Shown here piece after piece: positions 55,972 through 57,598 of a stretch of 64,000 nt of DNA. The stretch lies in contig CADCKD010000001.1 in NCBI GenBank assembly GCA_902801985.1, positions 1 through 64,000 of the forward strand. Direction: 5' to 3'. Position 1 is the first letter of the stretch; each line of letters starts with the position of its first letter. This DNA is from an uncultured bacterium. Lineage in GTDB: Bacteria; Cyanobacteriota; Vampirovibrionia; Gastranaerophilales; Gastranaerophilaceae. The notes under the pieces were generated by a model. It searched no databases and was not told the DNA's origin. It worked only from the letters and a program-made list of their open reading frames with translations. Both the position numbers and the translations under genes were made by a program.

Positions 55972-57474
55972 TTATTCAACAGTTACAGGCTCATACCTAT
56001 CACTGAGAATAGTCTTAAGCATAAATTCTACAGGATTCATACCAATAGAACCAATAAGATTCTTAAAAGTTCCAGCACTCTGTCCACTTACTAAAACTAC
56101 GCCTTTACGACTCGCATCAGCATGAAAAGTATCATGTCTTGAATCGACTTGCCAGAATACAACAGTTGGAATTTCATATCCATATTGAGCAAATCTTGCT
56201 CTCATTTCCTCATAAAAACTCCAGTTCTGACCACCACACCAATCAAATTCCATATCGGAAATAATGATTAATGATTTAGGCATTTCATTAACAGGAACAT
56301 GGTTCTTAATAGCAGTATTAAGAATAAGTTCAAAAGCAGCTGCGCAATTTGTTGAACCAGACCAATTATTATAATCAATATTAGAAAGAATCTGTTTTAA
56401 TGTCTTACCTTTAATTGTCTGATAAGAAGGTCTAGAACTAAAATTCATCCAAAGTCCTGAATAAGCTCCAACATTTCTCTGTGCAAAATAAATTGCAAGG
56501 CTGACTGCTGTATCCATTGGTCTTCCATACATAGAACCAGAAGTATCTGCAATTACAATTGCGTTTGTACCTTCTTCAACATAATTAGGAAGTGCATCCC
56601 ATTGTGCCTGAAGAATATTCTCTTCTGTTGAATTCAAATTAGAACCGCTATAATAATTCCCATAACCTAGACCTTTATACTTTTCAATGATATCGTAAGG
56701 ATAAAGTGTAGCAGAATTAATCTTAATTTCTCCAGTTACAGCTTTCTGAGCAAATTGAGTAAATCTTTCCTCATCATGCTTTTTAAATGCATTTCTGTAA
56801 ATCATCATTGCTCTGGAAGGTACTTCAGAATATTTAATCTTATCCCACTGGTTAGTGGACATAAGACCTTCTACTACACCAATGTGCTTTCTCATAGCTC
56901 TGACAATTCTTTTGAACTCAAATACAGAATATCCAAGTTTAAGAGCGGTTTTAATACCAAGCTGTTTGGTCTTTTCAGAAGAAGCATCAGCAGTCTTAAT
57001 CCATTTAGCAAGAAGAGAAATTACATTACCTTTTTCAAGATTTATTTTATCTTCTTCAAACTGCTTTTTCATAGCAGACCACATATCATCTTCAAGTGGT
57101 GTACCAATCAATTCATACAGGTCATCATATCTTCCATATACACCAATCAAATCAAGATTAGGTCTGATACATTCAGGATGATGAAGAGCTGCATATTTAA
57201 GAATAATTCTAAATACTCTTCTTTCTCCAAGACCAGTTGTTTCCTTATCTCCTCTAATATCTCTCGCATAAAAAAGAATCTTTGTAGCAAGAAGAGGATT
57301 CTCTTTATAAGCTTCTTCGAACAGAGAAGTAATTCTATCTTCATTTGCTTTTCTCAAAGCACCGATTGTACCGAACAAATCAAGACAAGCAGTACCAGTA
57401 GTATTAAGTGCAATTGCACCATTCTCTGTTCTTGTCCATTTTGTTTCATTTTTAATAGCTTCTGCAAAATTCAT
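55972..57474 (-). CDS. DUF2828 / Ro60-like protein with C-terminal vWA domain
   Basis: A 500-residue protein. The N-terminal two thirds are helical repeats of the TROVE/DUF2828 type (FYARDIRGDKETTGLGERRVFR near 65-90, KWIKTADASSEKTK near 158). The C-terminal third is a vWA domain with an intact MIDAS (IVIADTSGSMYGRPMD, about 312) and a later SDMEFDW loop. Ro proteins form rings that hold misfolded or structured RNA and are regulated by Y RNAs, which in bacteria contain tRNA-like domains. It lies in the middle of a tRNA-like array; the tRNA-like body immediately upstream ends 18-30 nt from its start. Confidence 0.85.
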   Translation of the reverse strand: MNFAEAIKNETKWTRTENGAIALNTTGTACLDLFGTIGALRKANEDRITSLFEEAYKENPLLATKILFYARDIRGDKETTGLGERRVFRIILKYAALHHPECIRPNLDLIGVYGRYDDLYELIGTPLEDDMWSAMKKQFEEDKINLEKGNVISLLAKWIKTADASSEKTKQLGIKTALKLGYSVFEFKRIVRAMRKHIGVVEGLMSTNQWDKIKYSEVPSRAMMIYRNAFKKHDEERFTQFAQKAVTGEIKINSATLYPYDIIEKYKGLGYGNYYSGSNLNSTEENILQAQWDALPNYVEEGTNAIVIADTSGSMYGRPMDTAVSLAIYFAQRNVGAYSGLWMNFSSRPSYQTIKGKTLKQILSNIDYNNWSGSTNCAAAFELILNTAIKNHVPVNEMPKSLIIISDMEFDWCGGQNWSFYEEMRARFAQYGYEIPTVVFWQVDSRHDTFHADASRKGVVLVSGQSAGTFKNLIGSIGMNPVEFMLKTILSDRYEPVTVE

Positions 57475-57492
57475 AATCCTTTTACTCCTTTC

Positions 57493-57598
57493 ATGATGCT
57501 TTTCATTTCATCGGAGGGATTCGAACCCTCATTTCCAGTTTTTTAGACTAGCGTCTTATCCTTTTGACTACATACGAGAGAATTGCTGTATGCATCAC
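57493..57598 (-). ncRNA. ACAGCAA element 5 enclosing a tRNA-like body
   Basis: GTGATGC at the 5' end pairs with GCATCAT at the 3' end (7 bp). ATACAGCAATT follows the 5' strand, and the interior is the tRNA-like body at 57506-57581. The 3' end is 18 nt before the Ro/DUF2828-like start codon, a position comparable to bacterial Y RNA genes upstream of rsr. Confidence 0.55.
57506..57581 (-). tRNA. tRNA-like body with partial acceptor
   Basis: D arm GTC/GAC with AAAAGGATAA, anticodon stem CTAGT/ACTGG around CTAAAAA, and a canonical T arm GAGGG-TTCGAAT-CCCTC. The acceptor (TCTCTCG/CGATGAA) pairs only partly. The apparent anticodon AAA would be unusual (A34). Possibly a processed or mimic tRNA. Confidence 0.5.

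What the first reader, a model, noticed from the sequence alone, without database searches (positions are those of the whole stretch)
55972..57598. Ro/DUF2828-like gene embedded in tRNA mimics
The DUF2828/vWA protein resembles Ro60. Bacterial Ro proteins are controlled by Y RNAs that carry tRNA-like modules and are often encoded next to the ro gene. Here a helix-enclosed tRNA-like body with the ACAGCAA motif (57493-57598) ends 18 nt before the start codon, and a 228-nt multi-hairpin region follows the stop. A phage RNP built from a Ro-like ring and mini-tRNA or Y-like RNAs is a coherent hypothesis for the whole array.
Basis: partly seen in the sequence, partly recalled or inferred. Interest (0 to 1): 0.8.

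Follow-up and report, generated by a model that had tools for sequence, protein, structure and literature searches.

The report
Phage Ro60-like protein with tRNA-mimic RNAs
Many unrelated phages carry a relative of the animal RNA-binding protein Ro60 together with an apparently uncatalogued family of small RNAs that share one 'handle' (a short helix followed by ACAGCAA) and display pieces of tRNA, which suggests a phage-made RNA-protein particle that imitates tRNAs.

Summary
The finding holds up and is larger than described. The 500-aa protein (55972-57474, minus strand) is a Ro60 homologue. Its predicted fold matches Ro60 structures end to end (Z 14-16.5; next unrelated fold 9.6), and it aligns profile to profile with TROVE/Ro60 proteins (E 6e-8). 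The 'tRNA mimics' are real. The window has eight copies (a ninth degenerate) of an element: a 7-bp helix, 2 nt, single-stranded ACAGCAA, and a body that is usually an anticodon arm, a tRNA or a tRNA piece. The same handle accompanies DUF2828-type Ro genes in phages of Bacillota, Enterobacteria, Campylobacter, Mycobacterium, Rhizobium and Xanthomonas, with helix sequences replaced by compensating changes. Phages with TROVE-type Ro lack it (0 of 3). Some bodies are circularly permuted tRNAs with a closed acceptor stem, the architecture of bacterial Y RNA (YrlA). I conclude these are Y-RNA-like partners of a phage Ro; binding and function are untested. The most likely role is tRNA mimicry (decoy or tether), with autoregulation through the copy in the gene's own leader. 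The handle also resembles Dictyostelium Class I RNAs, whose mode of action is unknown.

The parts
55972..57474 (-). Ro60-like protein, 500 aa (DUF2828 + DUF7788/vWA, phrog_850)
   Evidence: fold; profile; MIDAS residues invariant
57492..57598 (-). Leader element (type B, GTGATGC/GCATCAT helix + ACAGCAA) enclosing a tRNA-like body 57507-57577; abuts the Shine-Dalgarno, 18 nt from the ATG
57607..57669 (-). Standalone element with anticodon arm CAGA-CUUUAAA-UCUG
   Evidence: 54.1 bits; in the model's training set
57674..57791 (-). tRNA-Ile(GAU)-like body with handle hairpin inserted next to the anticodon arm (handle 57729-57755)
   Evidence: deleting the insert restores a tRNA
57797..57920 (-). 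tRNA-like body with handle hairpin in the anticodon loop (handle about 57849-57874, ACAGCAT); identity unclear
57933..57996 (-). Standalone element
   Evidence: 46.8 bits; training set
53761..53825 (-). Standalone element just upstream of tRNA-Phe
   Evidence: 48.1 bits; training set
53062..53120 (-). Standalone element with Thr(GGU)-type anticodon arm; best match to Dicty Class I RNA
   Evidence: 49.4 bits; training set
52418..52488 (-). Diverged standalone element (ACAGTAA)
   Evidence: 23.8 bits, E 0.004; not in the training set
55850..55877 (-). Degenerate handle (hairpin AGGTCA/TGACCT + ACTGCAA) in the 228-nt region after the stop
   Evidence: aligned with intact copies in L012, L013, L016, L026

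Best explanation
The phage encodes a Ro60-like ring protein (DUF2828 branch, sister to TROVE) and a set of small Y-RNA-like RNAs that it binds in trans. Each RNA carries the same handle: a 6-7 bp helix made by its two ends (or by a hairpin when inserted in a tRNA), 2 nt, then single-stranded ACAGCAA. About 9-12 nt after the motif comes a tRNA-derived module, usually an anticodon arm, otherwise a T-arm piece, a permuted or a whole tRNA. Shown computationally: the Ro60 homology, the handle family with covariation, the tRNA modules, and the association with DUF2828-type Ro. Inferred: that Ro binds the handle (about 0.8); that the RNAs act as uncharged tRNA mimics on enzymes acting on anticodon arms, as decoys against anticodon nucleases or as tethers bringing such enzymes to the Ro particle (about 0.4); and that the type-B copy touching the Shine-Dalgarno lets surplus Ro repress its own translation (about 0.5). 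The confidence given is for the Ro + handle-RNA particle, not for the function.
For: Ro60 fold and homology. Handle covariation: 100% of cells paired, 88 double changes vs 15 shuffled, outermost pair not used for selection formed in 49/49. Strand bias 220:25 and arm-swap control. Tracks DUF2828-type Ro: 10 of 11 phages vs 0 of 3 TROVE-type phages, also in trans about 200 kb away in Xanthomonas phage XbC2. Converse scan: protein found in all seven tested contigs of 88 kb or more. tRNA arms 49 vs 1.5 expected. YrlA-like permuted tRNA with the same kind of handle beside LeBron's Ro gene; permuted tRNAs in four other phages. Leader copy 14-22 nt from the start in most gut phages.
Against: No binding or expression data. 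L049 and a subgroup of six Lachnospiraceae loci (L140-144, L163) have the gene without a detected handle nearby. Known cellular Ro proteins use Y stems without ACAGCAA, so binding specificity must have changed. Not all bodies contain a recognisable tRNA arm (49 of 123). Pfam TROVE does not match directly. Many loci are related, so counts are not independent.
Confidence: 0.75

Rival explanations
1. The handle is a processing signal: tiny introns in tRNAs (type C) and permuted tRNA genes are cut at the handle and ligated to give working tRNAs. The Ro-like protein or another factor assists.
For: Deleting the type C insert restores recognisable tRNAs; un-permuting some bodies gives tRNAs; several type C anticodons are not found among the plain tRNAs of the same locus.
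Against: Permuted acceptor stems are closed by very short loops (CTT in L042, CUA in LeBron), the YrlA design, which leaves no room for normal end maturation. Most elements enclose only an anticodon arm or other non-tRNA body. Insert positions vary. L016 has both an inserted and a plain Thr(UGU) tRNA. No RtcB or PF09414 RNA ligase match in this bin.
Confidence: 0.1
2. The handle is bound by a host factor or another phage protein, for example to protect or trim tRNA-array transcripts, and the link with the Ro-like gene is indirect because both live in tRNA arrays.
For: Elements sit between and inside tRNAs; no binding data tie them to Ro.
Against: TROVE-type phages do not have it (0 of 3), though one of them carries tRNAs beside its Ro gene. 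In 292 genomes, almost all without the gene, elements occur only in two with the gene and on one 5.1-kb phage-like fragment. XbC2 has both, far apart.
Confidence: 0.12
3. The elements are selfish or recombinational DNA repeats that spread within tRNA arrays.
For: Multiple copies per genome, inside and between tRNAs.
Against: Sequence outside the 7-nt motif is not conserved. Helix covariation acts at the RNA level. Strict strand bias, 220 vs 25 motifs.
Confidence: 0.03

Closest known systems
Bacterial Ro60/Rsr with YrlA-type Y RNA (Deinococcus, Salmonella, mycobacteriophages)
   Same: Ro60 fold; small RNA closed by a helix of its two ends; circularly permuted tRNA-like module with closed acceptor stem; gene and RNA side by side
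   Different: DUF2828 branch instead of TROVE; invariant ACAGCAA absent from TROVE loci; many RNAs per phage; lone anticodon arms; handles inserted in tRNAs; below the Rfam YrlA threshold
Class I RNAs of dictyostelid amoebae (RF01414; PMC7919456)
   Same: About 60 nt; terminal stem with variable sequence; UACAGCAA directly after the 5' arm; 3' end C-U-G(U); variable body
   Different: Eukaryotic, own promoter element (DUSE); phage copies score below Rfam's threshold (28.6 vs 41.5); no tRNA arms reported; known binder is an RRM protein
Ro60 of Thermus phage phiLo (PDB 9l5y, 9kop)
   Same: A phage-encoded Ro60 with the same fold
   Different: Only 14-16% identity; its RNAs were not examined here
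Permuted tRNA genes and tRNA introns of algae and archaea (from general knowledge)
   Same: 3' half precedes 5' half; insert near the anticodon
   Different: Bulge-helix-bulge sites were not looked for; tight acceptor loops; no RtcB found in this bin; lone anticodon arms are not genes of that kind

Membership tests
Ro60 superfamily | Helical-repeat ring joined to a vWA domain, as in solved Ro60 structures | tested here: met
   Predicted model; nine Ro60 hits lead Foldseek, Z 14-16.5 over about 400 residues
Ro60 superfamily | Sequence homology to Ro60 proteins | tested here: met
   hhalign E 5.8e-8 over 261 columns; phrog_850 matches TROVE proteins at 1e-54 to 1e-86
Ro60 superfamily | MIDAS residues in the vWA domain | tested here: met
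   DxSxS, T375 and D407 invariant in 19 sequences
Ro60, TROVE branch | Match to the Pfam TROVE model | tested here: not met
   DUF2828/DUF7788 match instead; hence filed as DUF2828 branch, not TROVE
Y RNA | Helix formed by the 5' and 3' ends | tested here: met
   Covariation over seven pairs
Y RNA | tRNA-like module (bacterial YrlA type) | tested here: met
   Permuted tRNAs, whole tRNA-like bodies and anticodon arms; not every element has one
Y RNA | Bound by the Ro protein | not testable with these tools
   Needs CLIP or EMSA
Y RNA (Rfam YrlA, RF02553) | Reaches the gathering score of 69 bits | tested here: not met
   Window about 20 bits, LeBron 39.8 bits; so 'works like a Y RNA', not a YrlA member
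Dictyostelium Class I RNA | Terminal stem + motif after the 5' arm + CUG(U) end, about 60 nt | tested here: met
   End-to-end alignment; 3' UG conserved 88/96% though not required by the search
Dictyostelium Class I RNA | Reaches the Rfam gathering score (41.5) | tested here: not met
   Best 28.6 bits
Dictyostelium Class I RNA | DUF2828 protein present in the same organism (needed for the proposed shared partner) | not tested
Spliced or permuted tRNA gene | Acceptor ends that can be matured and a ligase to join halves | tested here: inconclusive
   Short acceptor loops; no RtcB/PF09414 match in this bin; PF09511 search uninformative

The most novel reading that the evidence does not exclude
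A helix + ACAGCAA RNA handle and DUF2828-type Ro proteins form one ancient class of RNA-protein particle found in phages and in social amoebae. The Class I RNAs of Dictyostelium would then be Y RNAs of DUF2828 proteins. In phages the handle is used to display many different anticodon arms as tRNA mimics.
Probability: 0.25. Interest if true: 0.92.

Novelty: new variant of a known kind. Interest (0 to 1): 0.82.

Why it matters
Hundreds of phage genomes (665 records in one collection), including lab-tractable ones, encode this Ro-like protein, and I found no described RNA partner for it. The handle family supplies a concrete, testable partner set. It explains many unannotated gaps in phage tRNA arrays, and flags tRNA calls there that may be mimics rather than decoding tRNAs. 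It offers a mechanism for phages to fool tRNA-targeting defences, and gives a lead on what an orphan eukaryotic RNA class may bind.

Tried and rejected
Plain motif counting is uninformative (12 vs 8.8 expected). Splicing or permuted-tRNA-gene reading: considered seriously, kept as a rival, not preferred. A known ribozyme, riboswitch or other family: apart from tRNA, no Rfam family reaches gathering on the window elements; only Dicty_Class_I_RNA scores repeatedly below it. Minimum free energies of single elements are only modestly better than shuffles (z -0.2 to -2.2), so the case rests on covariation, not on energy. A diverse DUF2828 alignment could not seed a genome-contig scan. Key Y RNA papers (PMC10870794, PMC4201824, PMC6047535) were not held. 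Literature searches for DUF2828, Thermus phage + Ro60, and permuted tRNA + phage found no description of these RNAs; the library is not complete. A search for a published DUF2828/TROVE link in Dictyostelium led nowhere. The PF09511 ligase search rang nowhere, so it shows nothing.

Full report
WHAT IS THERE. The window lies on a 149-kb contig in a MAG; the closest relatives of its Ro-like protein in genome assemblies are in Lachnospiraceae MAGs. It carries phage replication genes: DNA polymerase, DnaB-type helicase, anaerobic ribonucleotide reductase. A 149-kb viral contig encodes a 93% identical Ro-like protein. The minus strand from about 51.9 to 58.1 kb is a tRNA array. Inside it lies a 500-aa ORF (55972-57474) with Pfam DUF2828 and DUF7788. 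On the same strand are helix + ACAGCAA elements: four strong standalone copies (57933-57996, 57607-57669, 53761-53825, 53062-53120), one diverged copy (52418-52488), the leader copy enclosing a tRNA-like body (57492-57598), two copies inserted in tRNA-like bodies (57674-57791, 57797-57920), and a degenerate copy after the stop codon (55850-55877).

THE PROTEIN IS RO60-LIKE. AlphaFold2 with 17 relatives gave pLDDT 78 and pTM 0.71. All nine Foldseek PDB matches with E<=1e-3 are Ro60 proteins, among them Ro60 of Thermus phage phiLo. VIA-align gives Z 14-16.5 over about 400 residues for the best rows; the next unrelated row is a lone vWA-type domain at 9.6. hhalign of 19 DUF2828 phage proteins against 11 bacterial TROVE proteins gives E 5.8e-8 over 261 columns. 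phrog_850, to which the window protein belongs (5e-131), matches bacterial proteins over nearly full length at about 1e-54 to 1e-86, and two of these checked with Pfam are TROVE + vWA_Ro60. The Pfam TROVE model does not match the window protein directly, so I call it Ro60-like, DUF2828 branch. Homologues in mycobacteriophages are annotated 'Ro-like RNA binding protein', and LeBron gp53 was toxic when overproduced (PMC13148394).

THE RNA FAMILY. In window + 24 IMG/VR loci a strict search found 92 elements, all on the DUF2828 strand; ten Markov-randomised copies of all sequences gave 3. Over 40 loci, ACAGCAA occurs 220 times on the sense strand and 25 times antisense. Neighbouring open helices number 107 against 23 when arms are swapped between sites, hairpin forms 22 against 2.6, and the antisense strand gives 1 against 1.7. 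In loci from Lachnospiraceae and other MAGs not used to define the family: 21 sense, 0 antisense, 0 reversed, and permuted 7-mers average 0.33. The linker between helix and motif is 2 nt in 117 of 123 distinct elements with 48 different arms. In 49 diverse elements all 343 base-pair cells are standard pairs, with 88 double changes, against 71.6% and 15 in shuffles. The outermost pair, not used for selection, is formed in 49/49; the inner six were required to match, so their 100% is by construction, but their sequence variety is not. A covariance model finds copies in sequences it was not built from, such as Xanthomonas jumbo phage XbC2 (E 7e-6, three within 5 kb in its tRNA cluster, about 200 kb from the Ro gene), Sinorhizobium phage phiM12 and further viral contigs.

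DISTRIBUTION. Elements flank DUF2828 in phages of Mycobacterium (LeBron), E. coli (Felixounavirus), Listeria, Campylobacter, Staphylococcus, Enterococcus, Bacillus and others. With the model, 10 of 11 DUF2828-type phage records give at least one match at E<=0.1 (some weak: Fusobacterium, Vibrio, Aeromonas), against 0 of 3 TROVE-type phages. Cellular TROVE loci likewise show no convincing ACAGCAA handle. In the reverse direction, a family-specific DNA pattern hit 33 stretches in IMG/VR. Of 18 contigs tested, 11 carry the protein, including every one of 88 kb or more; the seven without are fragments of 5.7-55 kb. Among 292 bacterial genomes only three have elements: two also have the gene, and the third has them on a 5.1-kb fragment. 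Exceptions: L049, and a subgroup of six Lachnospiraceae loci (L140-144, L163) without nearby handles.

WHAT THE BODIES ARE. Canonical 5-bp/7-nt arms with tRNA features occur in 49 of 123 bodies against 1.5 expected; loops of 5, 6, 8 or 9 nt show no clear excess. A few of the 49 are T-loops; most are anticodon arms, chiefly Lys UUU, Asn GUU, Ser GCU, Cys GCA and Ile GAU, usually 9-12 nt after the motif. Other bodies are anticodon + T arms only (L013 11433, L031 7909), whole tRNA-like bodies (window, L009), or permuted tRNAs (3' half first, acceptor stem closed by a short loop) in L035, L036, L042, L046 and L048. In the inserted form the handle is a hairpin (the same helix, circularly permuted) next to the anticodon arm of a tRNA; deleting it restores a tRNA that ARAGORN recognises.

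HOW IT PROBABLY WORKS. The YrlA consensus printed runs T-arm, closed acceptor, D-arm, all enclosed by a helix: a permuted tRNA on a Y stem. Directly after the LeBron Ro gene lie an ACAGCAA element, a YrlA-like RNA closed by GGACTC-TA-GCAGCAA...GAGTCC, and a second ACAGCAA element. I therefore read the handle as the Ro-binding part and the bodies as tRNA mimics. Closed or missing acceptor ends mean most could not be aminoacylated. For the Salmonella RtcB operon it has been proposed that the YrlA tRNA-like domain may competitively inhibit an anticodon nuclease (PMC7790460); lone anticodon arms would fit that idea even better. Decoy versus tether cannot be decided here. The copy in the gene's own leader is usually the weaker-helix variant (GUGA/UCAUG) and abuts the Shine-Dalgarno, 14-22 nt before the start in most gut phages, and within 40 nt in 27 of 41 loci overall under a relaxed search that will include some chance helices. 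This suggests autoregulation.

LINK TO DICTYOSTELIUM. Rfam's Class I RNA model aligns end to end with window 53062-53119 (28.6 bits; gathering 41.5) and scores three more window elements. Class I RNAs are about 60 nt, closed by a stem, carry an 11-nt motif next to the 5' stem and end in CUGU. They were reported as restricted to dictyostelids (PMC7919456). Common descent, convergence on one binding protein fold, and coincidence are all open; a shared DUF2828 partner is a conjecture I could not test.

LIMITS. No expression or binding data; E-values of the home-made model are rough; many loci are related, so counts are not independent events; the window's strong standalone elements and many other loci were in the training set.

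Noticed in passing
L100 3291-3428 (-), L106 3140-3258 (-), L118 1157-1271 (+): Cellular TROVE-type Ro genes in bacterial genomes of the same phylum have, just upstream, a tRNA with a 49-70 nt insert in its anticodon arm; probably a tRNA-type Y RNA without ACAGCAA.
   Followed up: partly
window about 53924-54390 (-): A tRNA-Leu-like gene seems split by an insert of roughly 350 nt; it looked group I intron-like to me by eye, but no Rfam intron family matched.
   Followed up: no
window about 52090-52260, 52610-52735 and 52910-53060 (-): Unannotated tracts of 100-170 nt with internal complementarity between the tRNAs, matching no Rfam family and lacking ACAGCAA; possibly further small RNAs.
   Followed up: no
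anticodon-arm bodies, e.g. window 57607-57669: Nearly all mini anticodon loops read CU-NN-[U/A]-AA (codons starting with A or U). The window copy has anticodon UUA, which would pair with UAA stop codons.
   Followed up: no
L140-L144, L163: A subgroup of DUF2828 genes in Lachnospiraceae MAGs has no handle within 3 kb; possibly a chromosomal form of the Ro-like gene.
   Followed up: no
window 54499-55404 (-): A Band-7/SPFH protein lies between the Ro-like gene and the next tRNAs in the same array.
   Followed up: no
L016 7630-7656 and 11595-11621: One phage carries both a plain Thr(UGU) tRNA and a handle-bearing one, while its handle-bearing Asp and His tRNAs have no plain counterpart in the locus.
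   Followed up: partly
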